Shown here in pieces: positions 8,175 through 49,648 of a stretch of DNA of 64,000 bases. The notes beneath the pieces are model-generated. The model did no database searches and was not told the origin of the DNA. It saw only the letters and a program-made list of their open reading frames with translations. The first letter of the stretch is position 1. Each line of letters begins with the position of its first letter. The stretch is from the NCBI GenBank assembly GCA_030272155.1, contig CP126197.1, forward strand, positions 5,262,001-5,326,000, written 5' to 3'. The translations under genes were made by a program, and so were the position numbers. Origin of the DNA: Tetradesmus obliquus (Eukaryota > Chlorophyta > Chlorophyceae > Sphaeropleales > Scenedesmaceae).

Positions 8175-8209
<35 letters not shown>

Positions 8210-31776: not shown

Positions 31777-33280
31777 TGTCATGCGGAAATGGGGTACACT
31801 GCCGAGAAAGGGACACAGGCAGGTGTTGCACTGGACTACCCCCCCTCTGGGGCTCTGGGGCTCTGACTGCACGTTACCACTCTAGCAAGGCGACACACTG
31901 CAGCAGATCGACTGTAGAGATCTGCCGCAGTACCTGACACTGACACTGACACTGTAGAACAAACAAGACAGACGCAGCACTGTCACACCAACCGTGGAGA
32001 GAACCAGACAAGAAGAACCAGTAGATGGAAGGACCAGAAGACCAGACAAGCCAGACACCACTGAGCACTGCGTGCAGCAGACAACAGTGATGTCAGTAAC
32101 ACACAGAGGGAGAGATCTACTAAGCACAGCACAGAACAGGCTGCATGCAGCACAGCAGAAGATAATCTGCTGCACTCAAGACAAGACAATGCAACTAAGC
32201 AGGTTTAGACGGTGCTGTGCCTGCAAGCTGGCCTACACAGGGAAGGTATTACGAGCAACCTGTGTGGCAGTAAGATGGTGTGAAGATCTGACAGTGCTGG
32301 GTCTGGATTCAGCCCAAATTGAGAGAGACAAGTTGAGAAACAACAGCTGTGCACTTGCTGACCAAACAGTACGGATAGAAGCGTCTGCTGGCTGGCAGTC
32401 TGGCTCAGAATAGGCCTTTTGACAGGAAGGTATTACGAATAACCTGTTGACTGCCGATACAGCTGATGCGAGAGAAATCAAGCTGCACAGCAAGGGCTGT
32501 CGAGCTGCTGGGCACTGACCGAATTGGACAGTGGGGCTGAAGTCGCGGGCCGGGCCTTGTTTGTAGGACGTTACACTGCTGATAAAGAAGGCAATGTGTC
32601 ACAACAATACTAGAGCACACGAGCATCAACGCGAGCCGGCGACAAGCAGGGCTCGCGGACCATTTGAGCAGTCGACAAACCACCAACAGGACCAACAGGT
32701 CTGTCGGAGAATGGGACTGCTTCCTGAAAACAAGGCACGACGGCAGCAAACCAGGCTCAATCTACTAACAACCAACTAATAATGCTGCCCGGACAAAGCA
32801 ATAGACCAATTCTCGCCTGCGTGAGGGTGTCAACCACGCAACCCGCCTTGCATCGCAAGGCGGCAACTGGCGACTTGACCAACAAGCAGGATGACACATG
32901 CCATATCAAGAGCAAAGGTGCACGAGAAGATAGCACGTAGCATTTAAACACTTGCTGAGCACTTGAGACAGCTGCTTGGCTGTGCACGGTGCTGCAATAC
33001 GCAAGTGTAAAGCGGAAGCAGACAATCACCGACAAGCAGCGAGGTGATAAAAATCCCTCGTGCATTTTATTAATACAAACAACGTTCTCGTGCAGGCATA
33101 CGGCTGGATGCAGCTGCCAACACAGCAAACCACTGCAGATGCATAGTTCACTGTGCACTTCACAGCTGCCTAGCTGCAGCTGCGCAGTTTGAAGTCAGCG
33201 CATAACCGGCCGTTGCTGCTACACACAGCTGATTGCAAAAGTAACACATGTTCGGCAAAGCACTCATGTTCGGCATGACA
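31777..33280 (-). repeat. 3' LTR of the retrotransposon
   Basis: The core at 31857-33280 (1424 bp) matches the 5' LTR. The outermost 80 bp (31777-31856) are not present in the 5' LTR. They include a 68-bp segment (31777-31844) that is repeated just inside this LTR at 33283-33350. The outer end is followed by the target duplication. Confidence 0.85.
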
Positions 33281-33653
33281 GCTGTCATGCGGAAATGGGG
33301 TACACTGCCGAGAAAGGGACACAGGCAGGTGTTGCACTGGACTACCCCCCTCAACTTTTCAGCACAGCGGCAAAGTTGACAAAAGGTGCACAACTGCTGG
33401 TGGCAATCAGCACTGCAATGAACACCCCCCCATATACCATCGTGTACAAAAACACTGCTGATGATGCTGTACGCCTACCACGGCTCGTCGGCTACTACCA
33501 CATCACGTGACAATGCACTTGCACTCAATGCTACTGGGCAGGCATCCCTAGTCAACCAGTTCTACAGCTGATGCTGCCGCATAGTAACAATCTCACACAC
33601 ACGCACATACAATGAACACACACATACCAGCGCCAGTAGCCTGACGCCAGCAA
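33281..33653 (-). other. Retrotransposon region between pol and 3' LTR, with LTR-LTR-like junction
   Basis: Positions 33275-33290 read GCATGACA, GC, TGTCATGC around the LTR edge: a palindrome made of the two LTR ends with two extra bases. This is what a two-LTR junction looks like. A purine run (minus strand TTGAGGGGGG) at about 33345-33354 is a candidate polypurine tract. Confidence 0.6.
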
Positions 33654-36600
33654 TCACTCTGCCAGAAAAACAAACGACTGCTGCATACGATAAGGTGCAG
33701 ACAGGTGGCGCAAACGCCAAGCTGCAGAAGCAAACACACACAACCACGTGACGCAGCGATGACTTTCATCATGCGGATGCGGCACGCTGCCGACAATGAC
33801 CTGCAACCTTCCTTTTGCTTGCAGATCGCGTAGCCAAGCTACACGCGGATGAGGGGCGTCCGTGGTGTAAGCATGAGGCACCAAAACACACACACAAGGA
33901 ACGTGAAGGGTCATGAGAGGAAGAGCAAGGTCCAGGAGGCACGGCGGCACACAAGTGACAACAGCATCAGGGCGGATGTAACTGGACAGATAGGTGGTCC
34001 AGAACGCGGGCTGAAGGGCATCAAGGTGCAAATGTGCAAGCACATCAGGGCTGCTGGAGTTAATCGTCACGGCCGCTGCACAACTAGAACCAAGCTGAGC
34101 TGACACGCCACCATGTGGGCTGCCAAACGGATCAAGCACATTGCACCATGCAGTTGCTGCCAACACCTGCAGCAGCGACTGCGTCTCACAACCAGTAGCA
34201 AGGATATCGTCAGGGTGCATGGTGGATGGTGAATGATACCATGTGTGAATGTCTGCATGTAAGTCGCGAATCAACACATCTGACCAATGCCCAGGCATGA
34301 GCTGCTGATGTGCGGCCAACAGCTCTGACTGAACACACAAATTCCAGCGCGCAGGTAATGCAGCTGAGACATGCTGGGTGACAGTGGCAGCAGAGGTAAC
34401 AGGCGGCGTGATGACAACGCTGGCAGGTGGCTGAGCATTGACGCCTTGCAAGTATGGACGCACACCCTTCAAAGTGCGTTCATACCATGCACCAGTAGGA
34501 TAGCACACACGCAGACAGTATGGATAGCTGTCTTCACCCAAAAACTGAACCAAGCCCCAGGTGGGCACCTTCGTTCTACCCGGCCCAGGCAGTGGATAAA
34601 TGACATAACGACCATGCAAGGATTGGGCTTCCAACAACAGTCTCTGTCGCCTCTTAGCAAACAGCGGGGCAACATCCTTGACTGCAGTGGACTGAGCAAG
34701 CTCATTGACAGCTTGCCTAGCCCTCACCTGATCTAATGTGACTCCCACAAGCACACAATATGGACACAACCAGTGGCCGCGTGGCACTGCCGTCAGCTTG
34801 GGCGTCAGGCAGTCCAAGTGCCAGCCAGTGTTGCAGTTGTCACACAGCAGCATTTCCCCTTCTCTGTCGGGAAACCTGCACACTTCACAAGGGTGGTCAG
34901 CAGACACACGTGCAAGTGTAGGGTCGATGGTAGGATCGATGCCAGGCAAATGACAAGGCGCCAGGTTTTTGATGTTATGATGAATTGTACTGCCACACTT
35001 GCCCTGCAGGATTGCTACTCCGCCAGGTCGCAACTCAACAACACGCAGGATTTGCGGATACGCTGGGATCTGCAGGGTGTTCACAACATTGCTGCGGCGC
35101 ACATACACAAATTGGCCAGGCCAGAACTTGACCAAAGAGGGTTTGTACTCACCGCTGCGTATCATGGCGTACCTCAAGGTATCCCTGTGTTGCGCAACTT
35201 GCAAATTGCTGCCGGCCTCAACACACAACTGCTGCACCAACGCGGCACGTTGCAACAAAGACTCAGCTGCTGCTGCTGGGTCATCAAAGCACAGATGCTG
35301 CTCAGAGATACGCTGCACAACAGCAGGTGGCACAGTGCAAGGTCTGGCATGCAGCAGCTCGTAGGGTGACAGCTTTGTGGATGCCTGTGTAGACGCATTA
35401 TAACCAAGTTGCACCCAGTAACAGTCGACGTCCCAATTTCGCACATGGCAAGACTGGGCGCAGTGCTTACGCAAAGCTTGCTTCACACTCTGCACACAGC
35501 GCTCGGCCAGGCCATTGGCAGAAGGGTTGTTAGGAGCTGTCACACGATGCGTGATGTAACAAGATTCTAACAAGGCTTCAAAAGCACCACGAAACTCAGA
35601 CCCTCCATCTGTAACACACTCTGCACACGCACCAAAAGCACTGAGCACTGAGCTGAGGAAGGCGTGCGCCACTGTCTCCGGCTGCTTGTCTGTGAGGGGC
35701 ACAAGCCGCAGGGTTTTGCTGTAGTGCTCCACAAAAACAGCGATGTAACGGTTGCCCCTAGCAGTGGGCAAGAACTCACCACACAAGTCAGCACTCCAAC
35801 GGTACATGAGGGACATGATGGGCAGCGGACACAACTCAGGGGGTTTAGCATGAAAACTGGAGTTGACCTGACGGCACAGTTCACAACCTTTGACAACTGC
35901 ATACGCATCCTTGTACAACGAGTACCACCACACAGATGACAGAGCCATATGTATAAGCCGCTTCTCACCCCAATGACCTGTGCGTTCATGCATACCTGTG
36001 AGAATGGCGGTCCTTTCTGCTGGGGGCGGCACGACACGCATGGAACCATCAGACATGCGGCGATGCAGCACACCAGTACCACCCACAACAGTAAATGAGT
36101 AATGCTTTGCACGCTGCTTTAGGCGACGCAACTCTGTGGGTGACAACTCAGCAGCGCCAGTAACACCTTCACACACGTACTGCAGAAGCACAGGGTCTCT
36201 CCAGATGTCACGCCGTTGGTGAGCAGAGCACAAGACTTCTTCATCCATGGCAGCCATGCAATGCAGGGTGTTGGCATAGTGAGGATTGCCTTCATGCACT
36301 GGGACAACCTGGTGCCAGCTGTAAAACGCAGTGCTCTCAGAAGGAGCTGGTGCACAATGCGGGCTTTGAACAGACCACTCCTTACAGGCAGTGCTGCGAC
36401 ATGCTGCTGCAGAGACACACACAGTGGATGAACACGCAGTAGACAAGGCAAGGCAAATGGCCAGCAGACTAGACACAGCATTCTGGTCCATCGCCTTACC
36501 AGTGATGGCGTGACGACTGGCTTCTGTGACACGGGCCTGGCCAGGAGCATCAGCAACTTGAGTTGTGCCAACATCGTAACCCATTGCAGCTTCACGCTCG

Positions 36601-39600
36601 TCAGGGCATGGCTCAGTCCACTCTTGACGGCTGCTGTCCCAGACTGCACCAGCTGCACCAAATGTGAAACCACGTGAACGATGAAATGCCACAAAGGTAG
36701 GGAAAGCAGACCTGGGTTGGCCTGACTGGTTGCAAACATAGAATGGCGCGCGGTCACTTTGCTCAACAGGGAACACCAACCGGTTAGGCAGCATGATGGA
36801 GGACACTTGCAGACCAGGAGACCTTTGCACGTGCTTCAACACTGCCTGCAGTCGTTCGGCAGCAGCGAGGTTGGTCCAGTAATGGCGCATGCGATGTGCA
36901 TAACTGTCGAATTGAGCAGCATCGCAGGCAACCGGCTGACCAAAGCTGCTGCAAATTAGCTGCACATTTTCAGACAGCGTGCGGCGGATTCTGCCAAAGT
37001 CAAACCCTAAGAATGTGTTTTCCACAAAATAACCTGGGGGCTTCTGCTGCTGCAGCTGCTGAATGGCCCCTAGGATGGTGCGCAGCGCAAAGAAGGTATT
37101 GGAATGATCACCACGCACCCCTTTGCCACTGCCAGCTGGACTCAAATCTTGACACTCAAAGCCAGCCACAACACACCATTGGCTGCCATCACACAAACCA
37201 GCACGCACCAAGGATGCTGAGTCAACTTTCCACACGTTTTGCGGCAACGAGGTGAACGCGTTCTGATATGCAGCAGGACTGAGCAGAGCAGGGTATTGTT
37301 CTGTCAGCCTGTACAAGCGGTGTGCAGCTACACGACGAACAACAGGGCACACGTCACAATAGACATAACGATGGACTTTGATGCCGTTGCGCAGCAACAT
37401 CTCCAGGCCAGCACACATGCCGCCAAACAACTCAAGCACACAAACGCCATCAGCCAATGCATTGCTGAAAAACTGCTCACCAACAACGTGGGTGCAGATG
37501 CTGCCAGTTGGGCGCACGCCATGACGATCTCTCACTGGTTGACACTCCTTGCCTTTGCGCATAATGCAGGCAGGCCGCCAGGCATGGTAATGGGACGGCT
37601 CGCTTTGGCAGCATTGCACGTCAGCGAATGCAGCTGTACACCACTGAGAAGCACGTGCACGCAAGGAACAGATGCGCTGCTCTGCAATTGCTGAGTTGGC
37701 AGCTGGCACCTGCTGCGTGGTGCTGGCATGAGCACAAACAGTCTCATCTCCATAATCATCACACATCGAGAACGCTGAGGAATTTGGTGGCTGTGACAGG
37801 GCATGCTGCATAAGGGCAAATGAATGAAGAGCAGAGTCAACAAGGTAGGATGGCGCGCAGGCAGCACTGTCGCAGGTGTGGTGAATGTGGTGCGTGACGA
37901 GGCCACAGAATGACTCAAGGGGGCTACATGACAACATACTACCAAGAGCTACAAGTGACGGACTGGGCACAACACTGCTGCTGACAGCAGGCTCAACAGG
38001 GACTATGACGCAACGACCAGAACACACCACGCATGCACACACCTCAACATCCAAACGGGCGCCGCTGACATCCTGGGCGCTATCCAGTGGCAAACGCGAA
38101 AGTGCATCGGCATTAGCATGAGTTGTGCCAGGCCTGTGCACTATGTCAATGTCATATTCCGATAAAATGGCACGCCAACGACCGTACTGCCCATGCAGGT
38201 CCTTGCTGTTGATGAGCCAGGTCAAGGGAGCATGATCAGTGACAACAGTAACTTTGCGACCGTGGATAAGTTGGCGCAGAGTCATACAACCCCACACAAC
38301 AGCAAGCAACTCACCCTTGTAGGAGCAGTAGTTTCTCTCGTGAACATTTAATGACCTGCTGATGCAAGCACACAAGTGTTCAACGCCATCACCATCCAGC
38401 TGAGCAAGACAACAACCGATGCCTTTCACAGACCAGTCACAGTAAAGTATTAAAGGCAAATCTGGATGCACGCGCTTCAAAGCCAGACCTTCGGTGGTCA
38501 GCACACGTTTTAGCTCGTCAAACGCAGCCTGCTGAGCATCACCCCATTGCCAGTCAACACCCTTGCCAAGCAGCTGATTCAGCGGCGCAGCAGTTGCGCT
38601 GAAATTTGGCACAAATCTCCGATAATATGACATCAACCCCAATACGGATCTCACCTCCTCAACACAGGTGGGCGGCTTCAGCGCAGTAATAGCAGCAACC
38701 TTGGCCTGGTGAGGTGTCAGCCCATATTTGGACACGTTGAACCCTAAGTACTCCACAACGTCACACGCAAACAGGCTTTTGTCTGGGTGCATTTTCAAAC
38801 CAACGGCATGCAGTGCTGTCAAGACACGACGCACATGCTCATTATGCTCTTGTGGTGTTTTGCTGAATATGAGGATGTCGTCTATGAATGCTTTTGCAAA
38901 ACCAGAGCAACCAGCAGCAGCAAGCTCCTGATCCATCAGTCGCTGCCATTGCTGGGGTGCATTGTGTAAGCCAAACGGCATGCGCGTGAACTCAAACAAC
39001 TGCAGCTCACCGGTCTTTCGACGCCACCAGAAAGCAGTGCGTGACCGGTGCTCAGGCAGGATCGGCCATTGGAAAAAACCAGACCGTGCATCCATCTTGC
39101 TGAAGATGCAGCAATCTCCAATGGCTTCAAAGATTTCATCAGCCAGTGGCAACCTGTAACGATCAATCTCCATGCACTTGTTAACAGGCACCAAGTTAAC
39201 ACAAAACCGCTTATCGGTCCACAGACCTGTCTCTGCGTCCTTCTTAGCGGCGATCACAACTTCACTCGCAAAACGGGTTTGCTTGCTGGGTTGTATGATA
39301 CCAGCGTTGAGCATTTCCAGGCATTTTTCATCCTGTACTTCACGCTCTATGATTGAGTGAGGCCTGGCCTTCACCCACACGCTCTTATCCTCACAGTCTG
39401 TACGAAACGGGATAGAAAAATAGCCTAAGGTGCCTGTGTAACCAGTTAATTCAGACATGCTGTATGCGAAACAATGTTTCAAACCAACTAGCAGCTCCTG
39501 CAGTTGTGCGGTGTCTGCAGGCGTGTACAAAGGATGATGGCCAATGATCCAACCATGCTCGGTCTTTTCATACTTGGCCTCAGGCACTGGAGATTGCTCT

Positions 39601-40814
39601 CCATGGGGCAGCATGCTGTCAATAGCAGATGTGCAACACGTGACATTACCATAATCAACGTCAACGCAAGCAGGACCACAGCAGCGCAGCAACTGCGAGT
39701 ACTCTGCAGGTGACAACGTCGCGCTAGCGTGTGCACACCACAGCGCGTAGTCAGCCGCCATACTTGAGCTACTCTCGTGTAGGCTTGGCAGGATCCACTG
39801 GTCAAACACAGGTGACATAGCAGGCATTTCAACCAAACCACACGAAACAGGCTGATGCAAATCCCACACACACACCGCGTTGCCAACCCCCCTGCATGTG
39901 GAAGGACCGCAAGCAGGACACACCTCAGCGCCAGATAAGAAACCTTCTAGGCAACAATGCAATCTGCCTTGACAACAATCCAGCTCTTCGTTGCTGCAGC
40001 AGGACTGCTGTTCAGCTAGGAGCTTGGCCTGCATTGACTGCGCTTGCTGCGACACAAAGGCCAATGCAGGACTGGTGTTAACCACACAATACTGCACCAA
40101 CAGCACCAGCACAGCATGCAGGACACTCAGCAGGCGGTGCAGCGGCACTGCTGCGCGCTTACGTGGGGCAGTCTGGGCACGTCTTGGGGCGTAGACAGGT
40201 GCAGGAAGCGCAGCAAAATGTGCCATCCAGAACTCATCATCATGAACACTCACACAACCAGGCTGCGCACTGCAACTGCCACCCCCCGGCCGAGAGGTGA
40301 CCGGAACAGCAGCCTCACCAGCGCTGGCATCACACTCCACAACAGTAACAGGCTCAGGTGGATGGGGCAGCATGTCGAAGCGGTAAATAGGACTGAAGCA
40401 AATGGGAAGCTGGTCTGAAACTGCGAAGCACTCGGCATAACCACGCGCACACACACGGCCGTCAACAAATGAAGCCTTGGCCTTACTTGCACAGGTCGCT
40501 GTGAAGGAGGCCCCCAGAGATAACAGTGCAGGGTAGTTGTCGGTAGGTGTACAGGTAGGTGATGAGACTGAGAAGCCAAAAGGCGGAAGCGAAAACGGTG
40601 GAGCCAAGGTTGTGATGTTTGAGGACCGGCGTGGGAGATTACCAGTTGGCGGGAAATGGAGGGCGTGGAAAGGAGCTAGATGGCGGCACAAGCGGCACCC
40701 CCCAGGGCGCGGTTGGCACGTTGTGGGCTGGTAGGCCGGGCATGCTGGCTTGGATGCTGGCCAGCACGGTGAAGAGCTGATGCAGCTGCTGCTGCTGCTG
40801 CTGCTGCATCTCAA
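33654..40814 (-). CDS. pol: Retrotransposon Pol: RT, RNase H, DNMT3-like MTase, integrase, PHD, 2386 aa
   Basis: RT lies at about residues 470-700, with FIDDILIFS as its catalytic box near 645. RNase H spans about 785-910 (LILYCDWSVKG, CSYKGELLAV, VVTDHAPLTWL). The cytosine-C5 methyltransferase spans about 1115-1455: motif I LELFGGMCAGLEML, motif IV region GFECQDLSPAGSGKG (catalytic Cys present, usual Pro replaced by Glu), motif VI ENT, DNMT3-type AHRMRHYWTNL, then EREAAMGY and AITGKAMDQNAVSSL. Integrase follows: HERTGHWG and CELC zinc site (about 1610-1640), then SADLCGE, VTDGGSEF and NPSANGLAE as the DDE triad (about 1675-1770). A C4HC3 PHD finger lies at about 1975-2018 (CEVC, CDNC, GWHLDC, CPYC). 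The C-terminal part has LDPFGSPHGG and VTCVPPCLLD, weakly like DNA-methyltransferase motifs. The first part overlaps the previous ORF in another frame, so the true start is probably by frameshift. Confidence 0.93.
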   Translation of the reverse strand: MRCSSSSSSSCISSSPCWPASKPACPAYQPTTCQPRPGGCRLCRHLAPFHALHFPPTGNLPRRSSNITTLAPPFSLPPFGFSVSSPTCTPTDNYPALLSLGASFTATCASKAKASFVDGRVCARGYAECFAVSDQLPICFSPIYRFDMLPHPPEPVTVVECDASAGEAAVPVTSRPGGGSCSAQPGCVSVHDDEFWMAHFAALPAPVYAPRRAQTAPRKRAAVPLHRLLSVLHAVLVLLVQYCVVNTSPALAFVSQQAQSMQAKLLAEQQSCCSNEELDCCQGRLHCCLEGFLSGAEVCPACGPSTCRGVGNAVCVWDLHQPVSCGLVEMPAMSPVFDQWILPSLHESSSSMAADYALWCAHASATLSPAEYSQLLRCCGPACVDVDYGNVTCCTSAIDSMLPHGEQSPVPEAKYEKTEHGWIIGHHPLYTPADTAQLQELLVGLKHCFAYSMSELTGYTGTLGYFSIPFRTDCEDKSVWVKARPHSIIEREVQDEKCLEMLNAGIIQPSKQTRFASEVVIAAKKDAETGLWTDKRFCVNLVPVNKCMEIDRYRLPLADEIFEAIGDCCIFSKMDARSGFFQWPILPEHRSRTAFWWRRKTGELQLFEFTRMPFGLHNAPQQWQRLMDQELAAAGCSGFAKAFIDDILIFSKTPQEHNEHVRRVLTALHAVGLKMHPDKSLFACDVVEYLGFNVSKYGLTPHQAKVAAITALKPPTCVEEVRSVLGLMSYYRRFVPNFSATAAPLNQLLGKGVDWQWGDAQQAAFDELKRVLTTEGLALKRVHPDLPLILYCDWSVKGIGCCLAQLDGDGVEHLCACISRSLNVHERNYCSYKGELLAVVWGCMTLRQLIHGRKVTVVTDHAPLTWLINSKDLHGQYGRWRAILSEYDIDIVHRPGTTHANADALSRLPLDSAQDVSGARLDVEVCACVVCSGRCVIVPVEPAVSSSVVPSPSLVALGSMLSCSPLESFCGLVTHHIHHTCDSAACAPSYLVDSALHSFALMQHALSQPPNSSAFSMCDDYGDETVCAHASTTQQVPAANSAIAEQRICSLRARASQWCTAAFADVQCCQSEPSHYHAWRPACIMRKGKECQPVRDRHGVRPTGSICTHVVGEQFFSNALADGVCVLELFGGMCAGLEMLLRNGIKVHRYVYCDVCPVVRRVAAHRLYRLTEQYPALLSPAAYQNAFTSLPQNVWKVDSASLVRAGLCDGSQWCVVAGFECQDLSPAGSGKGVRGDHSNTFFALRTILGAIQQLQQQKPPGYFVENTFLGFDFGRIRRTLSENVQLICSSFGQPVACDAAQFDSYAHRMRHYWTNLAAAERLQAVLKHVQRSPGLQVSSIMLPNRLVFPVEQSDRAPFYVCNQSGQPRSAFPTFVAFHRSRGFTFGAAGAVWDSSRQEWTEPCPDEREAAMGYDVGTTQVADAPGQARVTEASRHAITGKAMDQNAVSSLLAICLALSTACSSTVCVSAAACRSTACKEWSVQSPHCAPAPSESTAFYSWHQVVPVHEGNPHYANTLHCMAAMDEEVLCSAHQRRDIWRDPVLLQYVCEGVTGAAELSPTELRRLKQRAKHYSFTVVGGTGVLHRRMSDGSMRVVPPPAERTAILTGMHERTGHWGEKRLIHMALSSVWWYSLYKDAYAVVKGCELCRQVNSSFHAKPPELCPLPIMSLMYRWSADLCGEFLPTARGNRYIAVFVEHYSKTLRLVPLTDKQPETVAHAFLSSVLSAFGACAECVTDGGSEFRGAFEALLESCYITHRVTAPNNPSANGLAERCVQSVKQALRKHCAQSCHVRNWDVDCYWVQLGYNASTQASTKLSPYELLHARPCTVPPAVVQRISEQHLCFDDPAAAAESLLQRAALVQQLCVEAGSNLQVAQHRDTLRYAMIRSGEYKPSLVKFWPGQFVYVRRSNVVNTLQIPAYPQILRVVELRPGGVAILQGKCGSTIHHNIKNLAPCHLPGIDPTIDPTLARVSADHPCEVCRFPDREGEMLLCDNCNTGWHLDCLTPKLTAVPRGHWLCPYCVLVGVTLDQVRARQAVNELAQSTAVKDVAPLFAKRRQRLLLEAQSLHGRYVIYPLPGPGRTKVPTWGLVQFLGEDSYPYCLRVCYPTGAWYERTLKGVRPYLQGVNAQPPASVVITPPVTSAATVTQHVSAALPARWNLCVQSELLAAHQQLMPGHWSDVLIRDLHADIHTWYHSPSTMHPDDILATGCETQSLLQVLAATAWCNVLDPFGSPHGGVSAQLGSSCAAAVTINSSSPDVLAHLHLDALQPAFWTTYLSSYIRPDAVVTCVPPCLLDLALPLMTLHVPCVCVLVPHAYTTDAPHPRVAWLRDLQAKGRLQVIVGSVPHPHDESHRCVTWLCVFASAAWRLRHLSAPYRMQQSFVFLAE

Positions 40815-43800
40815 ACAGGTACTGCATGGGGTGCTGCGCGGGCGAGGGCACGGACTGCTGCACAGGCTGCTGAATGGGCTGCACAGGTTGCGGCACAGGC
40901 GGCTGCACAGGCTGCTGTACAGGCGGCTGCACAGGTGGCGGCTTCACAGGCGGCTGCACAGGCTGCTGCACAGGCTGCTGCACAGGCGGCGCAGCAGGGC
41001 TGGCAGGAGGCTTAGACACCACACTCAGCTGCTGTTTGCCAGCCAGGCCCAGTAAAGCCTTGAGAACTGCTGCAGCAGCGTCAGGGCTGCTGCACTCACT
41101 TGAGCTGCGGCTGCAGCTGGCGTGACGGTGGTTGATGGTTGGCTTGGGAGAGGGAGGTGACGCAACAGATTTGTTGCCAGGGCTGGAGTTGGAAGATGGC
41201 GTAGTGAAGGTGGAGGTGAAGCCAGTAGACTTGTTGGCGCTGGTGGTGGCGATGCGAAGGCCGTTGCTTGAACTGGAGCCGCGCGCCTTGAGAGTGGCGT
41301 AGCACCCAATGCCAGTGTCAGAGTAGGCGGGAGCGTTCTCTGCGTTGGAGGATCGGGACATTACGTTGCATGCGGTGCGACCAGTCACACGGTCGGCGCA
41401 TGCTGCCACAACCAATGGGTGCAGGGGATGAAGGTAGTCGGTTGTGGTTGCAGGGTTGCCGCGCAGGTGGCTGGCGCAGGTGGCAGCATCCATGAGGGTG
41501 CCATTTACTTGGTGGCACAGGTGGGACTGCACAACCAAACCACATGTTTTGCAGCCTGTGATGTTGGGCAGGCACTGGTAAAAAGTACCATCTAATTTAG
41601 GGTCCAGCCACGTGCCGGCAGCAGTGTAGACCCAGGCTGGAGCGGAGAGCAAGCCGTCCACACTTGACGCGATAAGTCGTTTGTACCACAGGTGAATGGC
41701 TTCGCCACCAAACTGCTGGTGCAGCGCGCCAGTCACGCTGAACACAGTGCTGATGCACATGAGGAAGATGCCAGCAATGATGTTGGCCATGCTGCGGCTG
41801 AGGGTTGTGTCAGCAGTAAAGGGCACCATGACTCCCAGGCAGATGACTGCAATGCTCAGCAGAGTGTGCACCATTGTGCACAGCAGGCCAAAGAAGAAGT
41901 GGCAGATGGAGGAGGTTGAGCTGTCCCCAAGAACAGCGCGGAGATCGGCGGCGGCCTCAGAGACGGTGGTGAAGGATGGCGCGCCATTGGGCCCATCGTA
42001 GCCCGGCAGGCCGGCCTGCCCTGGACGACCAGTGAACTGGATAGGCCCCGCAACAGCGGCGCTGTAAGACGTGGTAGTCATGGTGGCCTTGCAGATGAAG
42101 GTAGGTTCGGCTGACTCCCAGAAGGCGAGGTCGGTGGCAACGGGGGCCTGATAGGTGGAACCAGTAGAAGTGAAGTGAGTGGCGGCAACGGTAGGCGTGG
42201 TGGAAGGCATGGGGCTGGCATGTGTAGGCTCGCTGGTAACCACAGGCACATTGAATGAGGTGCTGCTGTCGTTGTGCATCCACCAATGGGGCCTGATTGT
42301 GAGCACATTTTCAATGAAGCAGAGCCGTGCACCAAGGATGCGCAAGATGGGTGTGCCAATGATCATGTCATAGGGAAGTGAATCATCATCAAGCACAGCA
42401 AAGGTGGCCACAACCGTATGCTGGTATGATGCGCCCTTGCCAAATGTAAGATGCGTGTGCTCAGTCACCACCAGCGGCTGTGAGCGGACGCCACACACAG
42501 TGCTCATGCGCATGGTGCTGTCACCAACTTGCTGCGTGCGCACACCACACAACTTAGCTGCGGAGGACCTCACAAAGCAGCCATCACTGCAAGTGTCAAG
42601 GAACACCACACGCAACAACTTGTATGAATCATCGGAAGCGCGCTGCGCTTTCCACCACATGCACATTCCAGGCTGAGCGGCTGGCTGCAGCAGCCGGGTA
42701 ACACTTGGCTTGCCACGCGCGGGAACAGTAACCGTGGTGGATGAAGTGGAGAAGCACACGTTGGAACCAGTGGAGGACGCATACACAGGAGACACTGCTG
42801 CCGTGCCAGGTGCACTGCTAGCTGCTTGGGTTACAGCAGCAGCTATTTGCAGCGGCACCTCGGCGCCTGGGCTAGGTGAACCAATGCCAAGCTTTTTCAC
42901 GCACGGTTGCATCAAACAATCCAAGAGCATTGTGCACGGGAACAATAAACCACCCACTAGCAACGTCGGTGGTAGATGATGATGATGATGGTGGTGATGG
43001 TACGGCCGACTGAACAGCAGAGGTGCCAGGGGCAAAGGTAACAGGGCCTTTGGATGTAGAGGGACCAGGGTTGGAAGAGGTGCTAGGCTGCTTGAGGGCT
43101 GAGGGTAGAATGGAGGCAGTAGCCGGGGCTGGGCTCTGCTGAGCAGCTTGGTGACGGGTGGTGACGCCATTGCAGGTGGTTGCTGACTCAACAGCCTTGC
43201 GGAAGCCAACAGGCATTTGACCAGAGTACTTAGCGGCAAATGCTTGCAAGGCAGCAGCATCACCAGCAGCTGTACCGATGACACAGCCAGGGCCTTGGCT
43301 GGGGCAGCGCCAAACAGGCTCACCATACTGCTCGTGTGATGAGTTGATGACGAGGTCACAGGGCTGACCACACTCGCACTGCAGGGCGGCGGCTGGTGTA
43401 GATGGTGACGATGAAGCGGTTGTGGAGGTGGTGGAGGTAGCCATGCTGCACATAGTGGTGCCAGGTGTATCGCCAGTGGGGCTGCTGTGTACAGCAACGT
43501 AGGGCGTGTAGTTTCCAACCAGGACGCAGTAGTTGCTGGCACCATGGTCACGGCGAGGCAGCAGCGCGTCTGCACCAGCAGGCTTGGGAAGCACAGGTAG
43601 GTTGATGTTGTGTGCCTGACAGTTTGACTCCAGCAAGGCACGGAGTGGTGGCGACAAAGTATCAGCAAAAGAGGCCAAGTGTTGAGTGCTCTTGCAGATT
43701 TCAGGAAACAGCACCCAACACTCGTTGGTATGGTGGCCCATTGACTTGCAGCAGCCACACGGCTGGCGCCCACGGTAAGGACTTTGATGACGGCGATCTG

Positions 43801-44226
43801 ATAGGTGGTCACGGGTGAAGCCATTGTGGGGACGCTGCAGGCCAGAGGAGCGGTTGTCATACCTGCCTTGCGTTGCAAGAGCAGTAGTGCCCATTTCCAC
43901 AGACTGGTATTGAGGGAGCATGAGTGAATCCAATTTTGAAGACAGGGAGTTGATGGCTGACTGCTGAATGGCACACAGGCGGTCCAGGTGGAGGTGCAGG
44001 TCGGATGTGGTTGAAGAAGAGGCAGCTGACTGGTCAGGGCAGCTGTCGGTGGTGATGGTGGCGTTGACGTTGGCACGGTGTTGGTGTTGATGGGCAGGAC
44101 GGGGCTTGGACTGCTGAGAGCTGCGCAAGGGACACTCGGACCAAGTGTGCAGCATACGGTGATCTGCGACTGTACACAAACCTTTGGGTGCAATGATGGC
44201 CATGACTTGAACACGCTGAGCATCAT
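40639..44226 (-). CDS. Retrotransposon protease plus transmembrane domain ORF
   Basis: The frame is open for 1195 codons, but the part overlapping gag is probably not used; coding likely begins near the gag stop (about 42,990). A retropepsin-like domain shows VVFLDTCSDGCFV (Asp-Thr-Cys-Ser instead of Asp-Thr-Gly-Ser) near residue 540, and YDMIIGTPILRILG near 620. Next come two strongly hydrophobic segments, FFFGLLCTMVHTLLSIAVI (about 773) and NIIAGIFLMCISTVFSVTG (about 808). A Cys-rich stretch with NIT and NGT glycosylation sites follows. The C-terminus is a Pro/Gln/Val repeat and a Gln run. It lies +1 relative to gag and -1 relative to pol. A membrane domain between protease and RT is unusual for Ty3/gypsy. 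Confidence 0.78.
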   Translation of the reverse strand: MMLSVFKSWPSLHPKVCVQSQITVCCTLGPSVPCAALSSPSPVLPINTNTVPTSTPPSPPTAALTSQLPLLQPHPTCTSTWTACVPFSSQPSTPCLQNWIHSCSLNTSLWKWALLLLQRKAGMTTAPLACSVPTMASPVTTYQIAVIKVLTVGASRVAAASQWATIPTSVGCCFLKSARALNTWPLLLILCRHHSVPCWSQTVRHTTSTYLCFPSLLVQTRCCLAVTMVPATTASWLETTRPTLLYTAAPLAIHLAPLCAAWLPPPPPQPLHRHHLHQPPPCSASVVSPVTSSSTHHTSSMVSLFGAAPAKALAVSSVQLLVMLLPCKHLPLSTLVKCLLASARLLSQQPPAMASPPVTKLLSRAQPRLLPPFYPQPSSSLAPLPTLVPLHPKALLPLPLAPLLFSRPYHHHHHHHHLPPTLLVGGLLFPCTMLLDCLMQPCVKKLGIGSPSPGAEVPLQIAAAVTQAASSAPGTAAVSPVYASSTGSNVCFSTSSTTVTVPARGKPSVTRLLQPAAQPGMCMWWKAQRASDDSYKLLRVVFLDTCSDGCFVRSSAAKLCGVRTQQVGDSTMRMSTVCGVRSQPLVVTEHTHLTFGKGASYQHTVVATFAVLDDDSLPYDMIIGTPILRILGARLCFIENVLTIRPHWWMHNDSSTSFNVPVVTSEPTHASPMPSTTPTVAATHFTSTGSTYQAPVATDLAFWESAEPTFICKATMTTTSYSAAVAGPIQFTGRPGQAGLPGYDGPNGAPSFTTVSEAAADLRAVLGDSSTSSICHFFFGLLCTMVHTLLSIAVICLGVMVPFTADTTLSRSMANIIAGIFLMCISTVFSVTGALHQQFGGEAIHLWYKRLIASSVDGLLSAPAWVYTAAGTWLDPKLDGTFYQCLPNITGCKTCGLVVQSHLCHQVNGTLMDAATCASHLRGNPATTTDYLHPLHPLVVAACADRVTGRTACNVMSRSSNAENAPAYSDTGIGCYATLKARGSSSSNGLRIATTSANKSTGFTSTFTTPSSNSSPGNKSVASPPSPKPTINHRHASCSRSSSECSSPDAAAAVLKALLGLAGKQQLSVVSKPPASPAAPPVQQPVQQPVQPPVKPPPVQPPVQQPVQPPVPQPVQPIQQPVQQSVPSPAQHPMQYLFEMQQQQQQQLHQLFTVLASIQASMPGLPAHNVPTAPWGVPLVPPSSSFPRPPFPANW

Positions 44227-45514
44227 CCAGGTGATCCAGGTTTAAGCCAGAGGTGGAGGTGTTAGATAGGATGGTATTGGAAGCAGGTTGCGGAGCAAGC
44301 AATGCACCATGAGCGGTTGGTGCAGGTAGGAGGAACTGCTGTTGAGCAGGCAGGCCAAACACGGAACCACCAGCATTCATGAATGCAGCAGCATCAGTGT
44401 CGTGCTCCATAGCCATTCTCTCAAGCTCATTGTTCAAGTTGACGAAACTGTAGTTGCCTCCGTTGACAGCAACACCATTGGGAAGGGCTGGCACGGATTG
44501 AAGAGCAGCATGAAGGCCGTTGGCGACGTTGGCAAGGGAGGAGCATTGGAGCTTGTACAGCAGGCGACGTACTGCGGCGTCTTCTGGAGGAATGGCTTGA
44601 ACATTGGTTAGGGTGTAGAGCGCGCGAAGCTTGATGACAAGGCTGCGCACGGCGTTGATGTCAGGGCAGGACGTCTGCAGGAGGTTGTAGAGCTCAGCCT
44701 GGGTGGCCTTGCAGAAGGTGGCGCGGTAGTCGTTAATGGCAGCTTGCCACAGCTGGTCAGCAGCCTGGTGAGCATGGTTCCTGGCAGCTGTAGTGTTGAG
44801 AGGACCCGAGTTGTCGATTTGTGTGAGGATGGGATTCACCTTGTCCAGCGCCCAGTTGTGGAAGCGGGAACCAGCGTTGGCGTAGGAGTCGGCAAACGCT
44901 TGGAGCTGACTTTGTAGACGGGACAGCTGGTCGGTGGAGCCAGGCAGCATGGAGCGTTGGAACTTGAAGAACTGCTGCAGATGCTCTTCAGCTGCCAAAC
45001 CAGTTGCATAACCATCAAACTTGGACTCAAAACGATACATGCTTGCGGAGACACACACTACAATGGATGAAGGATCAACGTCAGCAGATGCTGCAACAGG
45101 CTGCGGCACAGCAAATGGATTGAAGCCAAGCTGACCAACAACAGCAGCAAAGGGATTGCAACTGCTCACAGGCGACTCAGCACCAGTATCAGAGCCCTCA
45201 CTGACAGCAGCAGCGGAGCTCTTGACAGGTGAATCAAGTGAAAGATCACTGGCTGTGGGACTGCCGTACACACTACTAAATGACAATCGACAAGCAGCGC
45301 TGGGCCTGCTCACTACGCTGCGCTCAGACCAGACAGGATTACTAGTAAAACGTGCAAACTGCACCGGTGATGCAGCAGGCGCAAATGGGTCAAACCTGGA
45401 CACCGGTGAGCTGCTGTTACTGCCAGCAGACTCCGCGTAGCGCTGAAATGAACCAACAGCACTAAGTGACAATCCAAGGCTAGGCGCGCCAAGAGGCGAG
45501 CCTGGCCCTGTCAT
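42872..45514 (-). CDS. gag: Retrotransposon Gag, 880 aa, with zinc knuckle
   Basis: The N-terminus is Ser/Pro-rich, followed by a helical region (FDGYATGLAAEEHLQQFFKF through LNNELERMAMEHD) fitting a capsid-like domain. A CX2CX4HX4C zinc knuckle (CGCCKSMGHHTNEC) sits near residue 584, as expected for nucleocapsid. A second Cys cluster (CECGQPC ... WRCPSQGPGC) lies near the C-terminus. The leader between the LTR core and this ATG is 564 bp. The ORF stops at 42872 inside the open frame of the protease ORF. Confidence 0.85.
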   Translation of the reverse strand: MTGPGSPLGAPSLGLSLSAVGSFQRYAESAGSNSSSPVSRFDPFAPAASPVQFARFTSNPVWSERSVVSRPSAACRLSFSSVYGSPTASDLSLDSPVKSSAAAVSEGSDTGAESPVSSCNPFAAVVGQLGFNPFAVPQPVAASADVDPSSIVVCVSASMYRFESKFDGYATGLAAEEHLQQFFKFQRSMLPGSTDQLSRLQSQLQAFADSYANAGSRFHNWALDKVNPILTQIDNSGPLNTTAARNHAHQAADQLWQAAINDYRATFCKATQAELYNLLQTSCPDINAVRSLVIKLRALYTLTNVQAIPPEDAAVRRLLYKLQCSSLANVANGLHAALQSVPALPNGVAVNGGNYSFVNLNNELERMAMEHDTDAAAFMNAGGSVFGLPAQQQFLLPAPTAHGALLAPQPASNTILSNTSTSGLNLDHLDDAQRVQVMAIIAPKGLCTVADHRMLHTWSECPLRSSQQSKPRPAHQHQHRANVNATITTDSCPDQSAASSSTTSDLHLHLDRLCAIQQSAINSLSSKLDSLMLPQYQSVEMGTTALATQGRYDNRSSGLQRPHNGFTRDHLSDRRHQSPYRGRQPCGCCKSMGHHTNECWVLFPEICKSTQHLASFADTLSPPLRALLESNCQAHNINLPVLPKPAGADALLPRRDHGASNYCVLVGNYTPYVAVHSSPTGDTPGTTMCSMATSTTSTTASSSPSTPAAALQCECGQPCDLVINSSHEQYGEPVWRCPSQGPGCVIGTAAGDAAALQAFAAKYSGQMPVGFRKAVESATTCNGVTTRHQAAQQSPAPATASILPSALKQPSTSSNPGPSTSKGPVTFAPGTSAVQSAVPSPPSSSSSTTDVASGWFIVPVHNALGLFDATVREKAWHWFT

Positions 45515-46078
45515 GCATCAATGCAGTATGCATACAAACACCCTTACATACTAACACACCATGCACGCTGCACAGCAGCTACATAAGATGCCACATCTCA
45601 CACGATACCAACAACAACAAGGATGCAGAACCACACCAAGCCTGACCCTACTGTGCTGGATGTGTTGAATGCCTGTGCCACTGTTTCAGCGCACTCACTG
45701 TGAAGAGGGAAACCACACAGTGGGTGTAGAACACAGGGGCTCGCGTTGATGATGGGGTAAGGATCAGGCGCACTGGATTGGACGCAGTGGCCGCCTTTGG
45801 GGCTCAACACAATCCTAGCAGCAGTGAGGGTTATACAGGCAGAGTGCAGCAATGCAAGATTGCACTGACTGGTTAGTAACAGAATAACATAACACACAGA
45901 CAAGGCGGGACAAGGAGCTATACTGTAGACAAGAACAAGAGGTAGAGACTGCCAGATTTAAATAACAACTGACAGCACAGCAGCAGACACAGCAGCTGTA
46001 CTCTACCAGCAACAGTGCAGATCAAGTGGAGCTGCACTGCACACTGGGGCAGGGTTATGATCAAGCAGCAAAATGCAG
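45515..46078 (-). other. Retrotransposon 5' leader
   Basis: Untranslated region between the 5' LTR core and gag. The first bases next to the LTR (minus strand CTGCATTTTGCTGC) do not obviously match the 3' end of a common primer tRNA. No further feature recognised. Confidence 0.5.
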
Positions 46079-46905
46079 GGGGCTCTGACTGCACGTTACC
46101 ACTCTAGCAAGGCGACACACTGCAGCAGATCGACTGTAGAGATCTGCCGCAGTACCTGACACTGACACTGACACTGTAGAACAAACAAGACAGACGCAGC
46201 ACTGTCACACCAACCGTGGAGAGAACCAGACAAGAAGAACCAGTAGATGGAAGGACCAGAAGACCAGACAAGCCAGACACCACTGAGCACTGCGTGCAGC
46301 AGACAACAGTGATGTCAGTAACACACAGAGGGAGAGATCTACTAAGCACAGCACAGAACAGGCTGCATGCAGCACAGCAGAAGATAATCTGCTGCACTCA
46401 AGACAAGACAATGCAACTAAGCAGGTTTAGACGGTGCTGTGCCTGCAAGCTGGCCTACACAGGGAAGGTATTACGAGCAACCTGTGTGGCAGTAAGATGG
46501 TGTGAAGATCTGACAGTGCTGGGTCTGGATTCAGCCCAAATTGAGAGAGACAAGTTGAGAAACAACAGCTGTGCACTTGCTGACCAAACAGTACGGATAG
46601 AAGCGTCTGCTGGCTGGCAGTCTGGCTCAGAATAGGCCTTTTGACAGGAAGGTATTACGAATAACCTGTTGACTGCCGATACAGCTGATGCGAGAGAAAT
46701 CAAGCTGCACAGCAAGGGCTGTCGAGCTGCTGGGCACTGACCGAATTGGACAGTGGGGCTGAAGTCGCGGGCCGGGCCTTGTTTGTAGGACGTTACACTG
46801 CTGATAAAGAAGGCAATGTGTCACAACAATACTAGAGCACACGAGCATCAACGCGAGCCGGCGACAAGCAGGGCTCGCGGACCATTTGAGCAGTCGACAA
46901 ACCAC

Positions 46906-46950
46906 CACTATGGTCACCGAGATGTCCAGCTGCATGTCCAGGCATGTCCA
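46906..46950 (+). repeat. Left terminal inverted repeat of the CACTA element
   Basis: 45 bp identical to the reverse complement of 49604-49648; similarity continues with one mismatch for about six more bases. It contains three TGTCCA motifs. Confidence 0.93.
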
Positions 46951-49603
46951 ATGGCACCAAATCGTGTCCAGTTGGTGGGTTTGCATGTCCAGTTGCAGGT
47001 CACTGGACTGGCAGTCTGCCTGCAACTGGACATGTGCTGCTGCTGATGCATTGTACGCTCGAAACCCGGCTGAAACGCCGCAAGTAGATGTTATTGCATG
47101 TATGCCGCTTATACTGTGTCACTGAACAGCAAGCACGTCAGCTGGCCAGCCCATGGGCTTGCTGTAGGGTTTGTCGATATCACGTCCGCACCGGCTTGAT
47201 ACTCACACCAAAGTGTGCGAGATGGTAAAGTCTCTTCCTATTAATCAACAGTTATGGTGTCTTATGGCACGACAGTGCCTCACGGCGAAGATCAGCATGT
47301 CACTATAGCATTGCACCACTTCCCCGCTGCCGAAGCAGCAGCCTTTCCAAAACCATCGTGTACATCAAATGAAAAACGTTTAACGGCTCGTACAGCCCCA
47401 TTGCGTAATGCAGCAAGGTATGTCATGTGTTAAAATACAAAATGGCCAGATGGCATACGCCGTGAACTGTTCATCTACTGGCAAGCATACAGCTGCAAAT
47501 GATGATCAAATGATCACTGCTGACACATTACAGCGATCGCACCTGTGTCGCGCACTGCAGCTGCGTTGCATATGGTGCACGGGGCTGAAACAGACTGCGA
47601 GCGCGTGCCCACTGGCAGAGACCATCGCTGAAAGCGATCTTGAATAACAACAGATCAATGCGGTTATTGAGCGTTTGTCAGGCTGCAGATGCCTGCTCAT
47701 TGAGCAGCAGCAGTCCTTGAAGCACTATGCAGCTGCAAGGTTGATCCTGCAGGACATCAATGCTGTAGAAAGCGCATGGAGCTGCTACTGCTTATCTTGA
47801 TACTTTGATGACATGGTGAGCGACTCTTACCCAGATCAGCAGCGGCTGTAACGACAGCAACAGCCCTGCTGCTGCTAGGGCGCCCAGCTCACAGCAGCAG
47901 CAGCAGCTACAGTTGCAGCAGTGCAGCAGTACTGCCGCAGGAATGATCACACCATCACCAGATCAAGATCAGTATCAGATGCAGCAGCATCAGCCGTGCT
48001 ATGTCAGCTGTAGAGGCTGGGTGCATGCAGGCTGTCCACAGGTGCGTTGTGTGTTACCTGCGCTGCTGCTGCTGTGTGCAGGCTCCCGCCAGTTGCCCAT
48101 CTCCCAGCATCACAGGTAGGTCAGAATAGAAAACAGGTAGAAGGTCACAGCTGCTGCCGCTGCTGCTACTGCTGCTGCTGCTGTGAAGTGACAGCTCTCC
48201 CAATTAAGAGCATGTGGCTTGCTGTAGGGCTTGTCGTGATCATTCTTGGCAACGCGCACATGAACATACGCACGCAGCAGACAGCGTGCCCAGCAGGCCA
48301 GCAGTTGCATAATGTGAAACGTGCTTGCGACGCACTTCACACACACCATACTTGCTCGCAATGCCCCCCATGTGGTGTGCGCGCCACCCATCCAGCTGTT
48401 TCTCCCTGCGCGCATGGGTCCTACTTGATTGCAGTCAGCATGGCGCCACTGTATCTAGTGCAGCAGCAGACAGCCTGCTTGGAGACCGCATGTGCGATAT
48501 ATTGACTTGAGACCTCTGTTGGTGCGCAGACCTTCCCTGTAGGGACACAGGGGCCGACTGTCCGGCAGCGTGGCATGGCTGATGCACTTCCTGGTGAGCT
48601 TGAGCGGTGTATGGCAATGCAAGCAGTTTGCCTCATATGTGCGATTCAGCGGCAGCGATTATGTTGGTGCTTAAGACGCTGCTGCTCTGTAATGTTGCAT
48701 GTAGTGGTACGTGGCGGGCGCCAATCAACGCGCAAATTTGCTTTTGTTTAAACGCCGGTCGGCCCAGACCTTGATTAAGATAACGCCAACCTCAACAAGT
48801 GCCACATCCTACACTGCAGCATGCAAATCCAAGTGTAGCTGCTATGTTTCTGCTGCACTGCTGCAGGGGTGTTCTTTGAAACAACCGCTACACTTGTGAT
48901 CAATGCAGGCAGTGGCAGCCTGCCAACTCGCAGCTGCTGCCGGCTACGCAGACACCAGTGCGCGATCTGCAGCTGCTGGAACTTATATGTTTTCGTTGTC
49001 AGATGGTGGCATGCAGCAGTAGTGGCAGCTGGTGCATTGCTGTGCTGGCGCTGCCTGCAACAGGATGCACAGTAAATGCAGTTGCGCGTGTACTGCCATA
49101 GGCATAATCTGTACAAGTGGTAGAGACGCAGTCTCGTCAATGCAGTTCTTGGCAACTTTTCCGTGTGGTGTCCTCACTGCTTATGTTGTGATTGCAGCAG
49201 CTGGCCATGGGTGCCTTTGCTGTCATGCAGCAGCTGCGTGCTGTTGATGTTGCTGTGATTGCAGCAGCTGCCAGCTTCTGTTTGTGTTGCAGCAGCTACA
49301 TGCTGATTGTGTTACAGCCCATGGGTCACTTGCGCACTTAGCAGTTGCAGCTGCAGTGACTTGGTACCAGGGGGTCGAGGGCGCCAACCCAAGCACCTCG
49401 ACCTCGCTGTCCTGCCGCGAACACTTGTTTACTGCATCAAACACATTGAGATAATGGTAATATTGCAGTTTATGAAAATCCAGTTGCCGTGTCCAGTACC
49501 GTGTCCAGTCACCTACTCAATGTCCAGCAGCACACTGGACATGGCCATGTCCAGTCTCACACTGGACATGCCATGTGGCATGTCCAGTTGCACACCATGC
49601 CAC

Positions 49604-49648
49604 TGGACATGCCTGGACATGCAGCTGGACATCTCGGTGACCATAGTG
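49604..49648 (-). repeat. Right terminal inverted repeat of the CACTA element
   Basis: Reverse complement of the left repeat; ends ...CCATAGTG next to the CAC duplication. Inside it lies a dense array of inverted and direct TGTCCAGT copies that could form hairpins. Confidence 0.93.

What the first reader, a model, noticed from the sequence alone, without database searches (positions are those of the whole stretch)
36480..37480. DNMT3-like cytosine methyltransferase inside a retrotransposon Pol
Between RNase H and integrase, Pol has about 340 residues that match C5-methyltransferase motifs in order: LFGGMCAG, ECQDLS, ENT, AHRMRHYWTN, EREAAMGY, AITGKAM. AHRxRYFWxN is characteristic of DNMT3. 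Retrotransposons carrying DNMTs have been reported in Symbiodinium dinoflagellates and the charophyte Klebsormidium. A chlorophyte gypsy element with a DNMT3-type insert between RNase H and integrase is not one I can recall. Such an element could methylate its own or neighbouring copies and shape host silencing.
Basis: partly seen in the sequence, partly recalled or inferred. Interest (0 to 1): 0.93.

Follow-up and report, generated by a model that had tools for sequence, protein, structure and literature searches.

The report
Algal retrotransposon carrying a DNA methyltransferase
A jumping gene in what is probably a green alga carries, inside its own replication enzyme, a complete-looking copy of the kind of enzyme that cells use to put silencing marks on DNA, and relatives of it occur in several other algae.

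Summary

Split repeats (B-ORFs-A-B-A) plus a DDE integrase match the description of KnitGypsy-Dnmt3 of Klebsormidium, so the kind is known. New here: a broad family in chlorophytes with charophyte (Closterium) cousins, a PHD finger, and a second, mostly decayed methyltransferase-fold domain. RT and DNMT trees fit one old DNMT-bearing lineage in two domain orders, so the published 'independent acquisition' needs retesting. Activity and benefit are inferred; no CpG depletion was seen.

The parts
31777..50248 (-). Whole element: split direct repeats, gag, protease-like frame, pol; ends TGTCATGC...GCATGACA; 4-bp target duplication AATG (31773-31776 and 50249-50252)
45750..50248 (-). 5' B repeat (about 1757 bp of element sequence) interrupted by a DNA transposon
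   Evidence: matched to the uninterrupted 1757-bp B of copy L056
46906..49648 (.). CACTA-like DNA transposon inserted in the 5' B repeat: inverted ends CACTATGGTCACCGAG, 3-bp duplication CAC (46903-46905, 49649-49651); not part of the retroelement
   Evidence: read by eye
31857..33280 (-). 3' B repeat, 1424 bp, 100% identical to the matching parts of the 5' B; about 333 bp of B missing at its outer end
33283..33350 (-). Internal A repeat (68 bp)
   Evidence: 100% identical to the terminal A
31777..31844 (-). Terminal A repeat (68 bp)
   Evidence: the A-B-A order is also seen in copies on C1, C10, C6 and C4
42872..45517 (-). Gag-like open frame (stop to stop, 881 aa); CCHC-like knuckle CGCCKSMGHHTNEC read by eye; no Pfam match
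40639..44241 (-). Middle open frame (1200 aa) with a weak aspartic protease match (Asp_protease_2, E 0.053, below cut-off)
33654..40943 (-). Pol open frame, 2429 aa
38079..39413 (-). Reverse transcriptase and RNase H (residues 511-955; FIDD at 686)
36429..37451 (-). DNMT3-type C5-cytosine methyltransferase domain (residues 1165-1505); catalytic Cys 1264, Glu 1308
35454..36029 (-). Integrase: H2C2 zinc domain (1639-1695) and DDE core with D1719, D1779, E1814
34746..34898 (-). PHD finger (residues 2016-2066)
   Evidence: Pfam 4.3e-10; best PDB matches CHD4, KDM5/lid, PHF12
33702..34187 (-). C-terminal class I methyltransferase-fold domain (residues 2253-2414), catalytic motif IV degenerate in this copy

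Best explanation
This is a young, apparently complete Ty3/Gypsy-type retrotransposon with DIRS-style split direct repeats. Its Pol polyprotein carries a catalytically equipped DNMT3-type cytosine methyltransferase between RNase H and integrase. It belongs to an old family in green algae. Most likely the DNMT travels with Pol in the particle and methylates cytosines of the element's own double-stranded cDNA, or of the fresh insertion. New copies would then arrive already marked, which may hide them from host sensing of naked DNA or limit their damage to the host, while the PHD finger helps the integrase read histone H3 at the target. Shown: anatomy, fold, conserved catalytic residues, purifying selection on in-genome relatives, shared history with RT and integrase. 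Inferred: catalytic activity, substrate, timing, benefit and PHD role. My split: identity and anatomy 0.95; self or cDNA methylation as the function 0.45.
For: Domains and open frame. DNMT3 affinity by profile (DNMT3A 6e-19, DNMT3B 3.3e-16, DRM2 1.3e-9, HhaI 6e-9, DNMT2 about 1.6e-3) and fold. Motif IV Cys and motif VI Glu-Asn in 77 of 77 proteins. DNMT between RNase H and integrase in 99 of 109 Pols with RT, DNMT and IN. In the own genome the 7 best RT matches (self included) all have a DNMT match 0.5-0.6 kb downstream; none of the other 51 listed does. dN/dS 0.09-0.19 in the 8 of 21 DNMT pairs with dS 1.6-2.7. DNMT distances follow RT-RNase H distances (Mantel r 0.71, 0 of 999 permutations, 107 proteins), as integrase distances do (0.65). 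Recent insertion: 1424 of 1424 bp identical between B copies, 4-bp target duplication. RT and integrase catalytic residues present. Published precedent: two SymbioDIRS-Dnmt3 DNMTs methylate CG de novo in yeast (PMC5890265).
Against: No activity data. The yeast test of the nearest described relative, KnitGypsy-Dnmt3, showed no methylation and was called inconclusive by its authors. The residue before the catalytic Cys is Glu, where Pro is usual (recalled), here and in 59 of 77. No CpG depletion: CpG o/e 0.573 in the element interior and 0.589 in the B repeat against 0.498 and 0.511 in the flanks, though the copy is too young for a strong test. All six dN/dS comparisons that include the window copy are saturated, and the two very close pairs give 0.27 and 0.50 on very few changes. 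RT-bearing elements without a DNMT match also persist in this genome (51 of 58 RT matches).
Confidence: 0.62

Rival explanations
1. The domain is a conserved fold that does not methylate cytosine: Glu in place of the usual Pro before the catalytic Cys marks a change of substrate or loss of catalysis, and it serves as a DNA- or RNA-binding module (scaffold, tRNA or cDNA holder) in Pol.
For: Glu replaces Pro in 77 of 103 readable proteins with the DNMT after RT and in 12 of 12 readable proteins with it before RT. The yeast test of KnitGypsy-Dnmt3 showed no methylation.
Against: The other catalytic motifs are held: Cys and Glu-Asn 77 of 77, the fixed sites of AHRxRxxWxN 75-76 of 77, motif X Asp 73 of 77. 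A binding module would not need them. Pro is kept in 13 of 77.
Confidence: 0.2
2. The DNMT acts in trans on the host or on competitors: it methylates other insertions or viral DNA, or feeds host silencing, and is kept because it lowers harm to the host.
For: A slowing of retrotransposition that benefits the host is proposed as a possibility in PMC5890265 (text part 4), and antiviral defence by transposon methylases in PMC6338049 (passages). The PHD finger could direct the protein to chromatin.
Against: Nothing here separates cis from trans action. RT-bearing elements without a DNMT match also persist in this genome (51 of 58 RT matches).
Confidence: 0.2
3. The DNMT modifies the genomic RNA or a primer tRNA, as DNMT2 does.
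For: C5-methyltransferases include RNA enzymes. An RNA role was suggested for SymbioLINE-Dnmt (PMC5890265).
Against: The profile ranks DNMT3 and other DNA enzymes far above DNMT2 (6e-19 against about 1.6e-3).
Confidence: 0.08
4. Chimeric assembly or a chance fusion seen in one copy only.
For: The DNMT DNA itself has one match in the genome, the window.
Against: Nine other diverged DNMT protein matches in the genome, most in long open frames. An 89% identical protein with the same Pfam domain set in an independent JGI record (P0005). 99 of 109 in the same place.
Confidence: 0.01

Closest known systems
KnitGypsy-Dnmt3 of Klebsormidium nitens (de Mendoza et al. 2018, PMC5890265; parts 1-4 of 7 of the text read; term search of the main text)
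   Same: Gypsy domain set; DNMT3-related DNMT in the Pol frame; repeats arranged as in DIRS elements (Fig. 4c legend); purifying selection on the DNMT.
   Different: Host lineage (charophyte against a probable chlorophyte). The word PHD does not occur in its main text, and no second methyltransferase domain is mentioned in the parts read. The position of its DNMT in Pol is in a figure not held. Its sequence was not found among my hits, so clade membership is untested.
Closterium sp. NIES-53/54 proteins P0097, P0138, P0139, P0170 and the DNMT fragment P0098 (database records)
   Same: DNMT of the same clade, in P0097, P0138, P0139 and P0170 joined to a Gypsy-type RT; P0138 and P0139 also hold RNase H and integrase.
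   Different: DNMT before RT; no PHD finger and no C-terminal methyltransferase-like domain in any of the 9 complete proteins of this order.
SymbioDIRS-Dnmt3 of Symbiodinium (PMC5890265)
   Same: DNMT3-type domain in Pol; A-coding-B-A-B repeats (Fig. 1 legend).
   Different: Tyrosine recombinase instead of DDE integrase, per the paper; dinoflagellate host.
Animal DNMT3A/DNMT3B catalytic domain
   Same: Fold and motif order; best profile and structure match.
   Different: 22-24% identity in the VIA alignments; Glu instead of Pro before the catalytic Cys; fused to Pol. Animal DNMT3s carry PWWP and ADD domains (recalled).
REM1 of Chlamydomonas reinhardtii (recalled; no sequence seen, and one search listed no paper on its structure)
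   Same: Ty3/Gypsy-type element of a green alga said to encode a PHD finger.
   Different: As recalled, its PHD lies in a separate reverse-oriented frame and no DNMT is described.

Membership tests
Ty3/Gypsy LTR retrotransposon | Pol order RT-RNase H-DDE integrase, Ty3-like RT | tested here: met
   RVT_1, RT_RNaseH, Integrase_H2C2, rve in order; best PDB match Ty3 Gag-Pol 8.1e-66; D, D, E with 35-residue spacing present
Ty3/Gypsy LTR retrotransposon | Simple pair of identical LTRs | tested here: not met
   Repeats are split: B-ORFs-A-B-A in the window (with a 333-bp deletion) and in the C1, C10, C6 and C4 copies; C14 has no terminal A match
DIRS/PAT-type element | Split direct repeats | tested here: met
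DIRS/PAT-type element | Tyrosine recombinase in place of DDE integrase | tested here: not met
   No recombinase family among Pfam matches of the three frames at E up to 0.1; rve and H2C2 present; 4-bp target duplications at two copies
Dnmt3-bearing Gypsy of the KnitGypsy-Dnmt3 kind | Gypsy Pol with an in-frame DNMT3-related domain and DIRS-type repeats | tested here: met
   searches compared with the description
Dnmt3-bearing Gypsy of the KnitGypsy-Dnmt3 kind | Same clade as KnitGypsy-Dnmt3 by RT and DNMT | not testable with these tools
   No Klebsormidium protein is named among the hits
DNMT3 C5-cytosine methyltransferase | C5-MTase motifs I, IV, VI, VIII, IX, X in order with catalytic Cys and Glu | tested here: met
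   (motif names recalled)
DNMT3 C5-cytosine methyltransferase | Closest to DNMT3 among solved C5-MTases | tested here: met
   profile; fold; no tree with DNMT3 reference sequences could be made
DNMT3 C5-cytosine methyltransferase | Pro-Cys at motif IV | tested here: not met
   Glu-Cys here and in 59 of 77; Pro in 13 of 77, other residues in 5
DNMT3 C5-cytosine methyltransferase | De novo methylation of DNA | not testable with these tools
   needs an assay
Amino (N6-adenine/N4-cytosine) methyltransferase, C-terminal domain | Class I MTase fold | tested here: met
Amino (N6-adenine/N4-cytosine) methyltransferase, C-terminal domain | Motif I DPxxG and motif IV [SND]PP[FWY]-like | tested here: not met
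   Not met in the window copy, which keeps a motif I-like DPFGSPHG but has CVPPC for motif IV; both motifs in 19 of 59 proteins with the domain

The most novel reading that the evidence does not exclude
A single, ancient capture of a DNMT3-type enzyme founded a Gypsy lineage that has spread with green algae on both sides of the chlorophyte/streptophyte split. KnitGypsy-Dnmt3 would then be one branch of it and not an independent acquisition. The chlorophyte branch became a chromatin-writing retroelement: a PHD reader, a 5mC writer, and originally a second, adenine- or N4-cytosine-type methyltransferase that has since decayed in most members, the window copy included.
Probability: 0.4. Interest if true: 0.75.

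Novelty: new variant of a known kind. Interest (0 to 1): 0.63.

Why it matters
Retrotransposons are normally the targets of cytosine methylation, and elements that carry their own methyltransferase were described as independent captures in dinoflagellates and one charophyte (PMC5890265). Here the same kind of element forms a large conserved family in chlorophytes. PF00145 is annotated on only 14 of the 76 relatives, so a survey based on that model, as in Fig. 1a of the 2018 paper, could miss most of it. That gives many natural replicates for asking why a transposon would write the mark that silences it. Ten DNMT matches in one genome, 41-58% identical to the window copy apart from itself, with 51 other RT matches lacking a DNMT match as controls in the same genome, make the question testable with long-read methylation calls.

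Tried and rejected
Chimera: rejected. Ordinary LTR pair: rejected. The two interleaved repeats first looked like crossed insertions; the 5-bp overlap and the uninterrupted copy L056 showed a split-repeat element with a DNA transposon in its 5' B.

Repeat order in other copies (17 loci): A-B-A complete on C1, C10, C6 and C4. Against: C14 has internal A and both B but no terminal A match; C3, C2, C11 and C13 show one B with a terminal A match and no internal A (perhaps single repeats); C8 is rearranged; C5 has only a short match.

CpG depletion as a footprint of self-methylation: looked for and not found. dN/dS with the window copy: all six pairs saturated.

DNMT2 is absent from the 50 VIA rows shown; this excludes nothing.

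Host DNMTs: PF00145 gave 13 matches in the genome, 5 of them on the retroelement loci. The C7:6103905 frame was read and looks DNMT2-like by eye (CQPYTT); the others were not assembled, so whether the host has its own DNMT3 is open.

C-terminal domain by profile in the PDB: nothing significant; Pfam MethyltransfD12 in 8 of 18 members at E up to 1, best 2.5e-4, not in the window copy; the fold decided it.

Literature: ten searches, nine of them on this question and on the host. None of the listed titles and abstract starts reports a DNMT-bearing Gypsy in chlorophytes; two searches listed 20 of 25 and 15 of 218 papers. Against this, PMC6338049 (passages) says in one sentence that DAM- and DCM-encoding Ty3/Gypsy and DIRS retrotransposons were found in, among others, green algae and charophytes, without separating the two enzyme types. 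Passages only were also seen of PMC12344493, PMC8226300, PMC12477816 (a search for its reference entries found nothing), PMC9033089, PMC10675990, PMC12542154 and PMC9998398. Subscription journals are mostly not held.
Full report
WHAT IS THERE. The finding describes motifs of a C5-cytosine methyltransferase inside a Pol frame. All six motifs are present in order in one open frame, but on the minus strand: the frame runs 40943-33654 without a stop for 2429 residues, whereas the plus strand of the same stretch has many stops. Pfam finds RT (605-737), RNase H (800-930), the integrase zinc domain (1639-1695), the integrase core (1714-1807) and a PHD finger (2019-2063, E 4.3e-10). The best solved relative by sequence is Ty3 Gag-Pol, 8.1e-66. 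RT FIDD and integrase D1719, D1779, E1814 (D-E spacing 35) are present. A Gag-like frame (45517-42872, no Pfam match) and a middle frame with a weak aspartic protease match lie upstream.

NOT A CHIMERA BUT A FAMILY. The DNMT region matches 10 places in the window's own genome (104.66 Mb, 17 contigs; counts are lower bounds): the window itself, two copies at 58%, five at 41-45%, and two fragments, most in long open frames. The RT has 58 matches there. The seven best (self and six at 39-65%) are exactly the loci with a DNMT match 0.5-0.6 kb downstream; none of the other 51 is. Three of the ten DNMT matches have no listed RT beside them. One, P0005, is 89% identical. Later searches added Closterium sp. 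NIES-53/54 and Monoraphidium neglectum; one hit named as a bacterial MAG (P0168) is probably mis-binned. Only 14 of the 76 carry a PF00145 annotation, which may be why surveys missed the family.

TWO ARCHITECTURES. Among 174 proteins scanned, 109 have RT, DNMT and integrase: 99 with the DNMT between RNase H and integrase, 9 with it before RT, 1 with another order. PHD is in 89 of the 99 and 0 of the 9; the C-terminal methyltransferase-like domain in 55 of the 99 and 0 of the 9. Two of the proteins P0131-P0136 that I read (P0131, P0133) put the DNMT after a protease-like stretch in a Gag-type frame.

HISTORY AND SELECTION. DNMT distances follow RT-RNase H distances (Mantel r 0.71, 0 of 999 permutations; RT against integrase 0.65) in 107 proteins (two of the 109 dropped for lacking RNase H or a full-length DNMT), and the DNMT changes about as fast as the others (mean p-distance 0.58 against 0.54 and 0.52). 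In-genome DNMT comparisons (7 copies, 21 pairs, own Nei-Gojobori script): 8 pairs with dS 1.6-2.7 give dN/dS 0.09-0.19; 11 are saturated, including all six with the window copy; two very close pairs give 0.27 and 0.50. For the pair C7b/C16 the DNMT gives 0.09, RNase H 0.15, integrase zinc region 0.15. The retroelement DNMTs stand apart from ordinary DNMTs in a quick tree (46 against 24, support 100) and a careful one (46 against 8 of those 24, 100/100). The before-RT plus Gag type is a clade in the careful tree (100/98; 84 in the quick one); the after-RNase H type is one side of a branch in the quick tree (85) but not in the careful one. Only part of the hits went into these trees (30 after-RNase H, 13 before-RT, 3 Gag type), and no DNMT3 reference was in them. 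In an RT tree, 44 DNMT-bearing Pols are one side of a branch (99) against 8 RTs without DNMT from this one genome (8 of 51 taken), with the two architectures separate (100 and 91). This fits one DNMT-bearing Gypsy lineage with one change of position; DNMT-free relatives elsewhere could still break it.

ELEMENT STRUCTURE. Repeats of 1424 bp (B) and 68 bp (A), each pair 100% identical, lie as B-ORFs-A-B-A on the minus strand. A second copy (C1, L056), with most of pol deleted, shows the complete form: B 1757 bp (99.9%) and A 61 bp (100%), with 2 bp between internal A and B and no gap between B and the end A. The same order is seen on C10 and, with shorter B matches, on C6 and C4; C14 lacks a terminal A match, and C3, C2, C11 and C13 show a B with terminal A but no internal A. 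Ends are TGTCATGC...GCATGACA with 4-bp duplications, AATG in the window and TGTG on C1. So DIRS-type repeats go with a DDE integrase, the combination reported for KnitGypsy-Dnmt3 (Fig. 4c legend, PMC5890265). The window copy lacks about 333 bp of its 3' B and has a 2.7-kb CACTA-like DNA transposon in its 5' B.

HOW IT PROBABLY WORKS. Shown: an in-frame, conserved DNMT3-type domain within the replication polyprotein of a recently inserted element, under purifying selection in its measurable relatives. Inferred: it methylates the element's own cDNA or fresh insertion. Two SymbioDIRS DNMTs methylate CG in yeast, but KnitGypsy-Dnmt3 did not, which its authors call inconclusive. CpG is not depleted in the element (0.573 against about 0.50 in the flanks), a weak negative because the copy is young. 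The PHD finger's best matches (CHD4, KDM5/lid, PHF12, BAZ2B, PHF21A) include several readers of H3 unmodified at K4 (recalled), as does the ADD domain of animal DNMT3s (recalled); that parallel is only a lead.

NOVELTY. The kind is known (PMC5890265). That paper calls the Klebsormidium case an independent acquisition, and the words chlorophyte, Chlamydomonas, Volvox and PHD do not occur in its main text; the 2025 survey PMC12344493 mentions retrotransposon DNMT3s of streptophytes and dinoflagellates, naming the LTR type as Copia (passages). Nine literature searches on this question listed no chlorophyte DNMT-Gypsy; one sentence in PMC6338049 lumps green algae with DAM/DCM retrotransposons. New here, as far as these searches go: the chlorophyte family and its size, the PHD finger, the second methyltransferase-fold domain, the Glu-Cys motif, and the case for one old lineage.

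Noticed in passing
window 46906-49648: A 2.7-kb CACTA-like DNA transposon with long inverted ends and a 3-bp CAC duplication sits in the 5' B repeat of the element.
   Followed up: partly
L056 (G000:C1:9765000-9774900) and repeat pairs on C10, C14, C6: Copies with the same repeats: L056 lacks most of pol (window 33636-39918) but keeps gag, and the C10, C14 and C6 B pairs start only 3.8-5.2 kb apart; probably mobilised in trans.
   Followed up: partly
G000:C7:4213000-4237000: Two DNMT Pol copies identical over 3.9 kb in direct order, with a 3.1-kb inverted duplication beside them; a recent rearrangement or nested insertion.
   Followed up: partly
P0131, P0133 (read); P0134-P0136 (hits of similar length): A third arrangement: Gag-type, protease-like and DNMT stretches in one frame of about 1330 aa without RT.
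   Followed up: no
window 34434-34634 (Pol residues 2104-2170): A stretch between PHD and the C-terminal domain, conserved by eye in relatives, that looks like a small chromatin barrel (LHGR...WG...Y.G....V.F.DG); no Pfam match.
   Followed up: no
window 7301-11233, minus strand: A 1310-residue open frame rich in Ala, Gln and Ser repeats, no Pfam match; coding status unknown.
   Followed up: no
window 33654-45517, minus strand: Gag-like, middle and Pol frames overlap in three different frames, each step being +1 (or -2) by arithmetic on the frame coordinates; frameshifting or splicing not tested.
   Followed up: no
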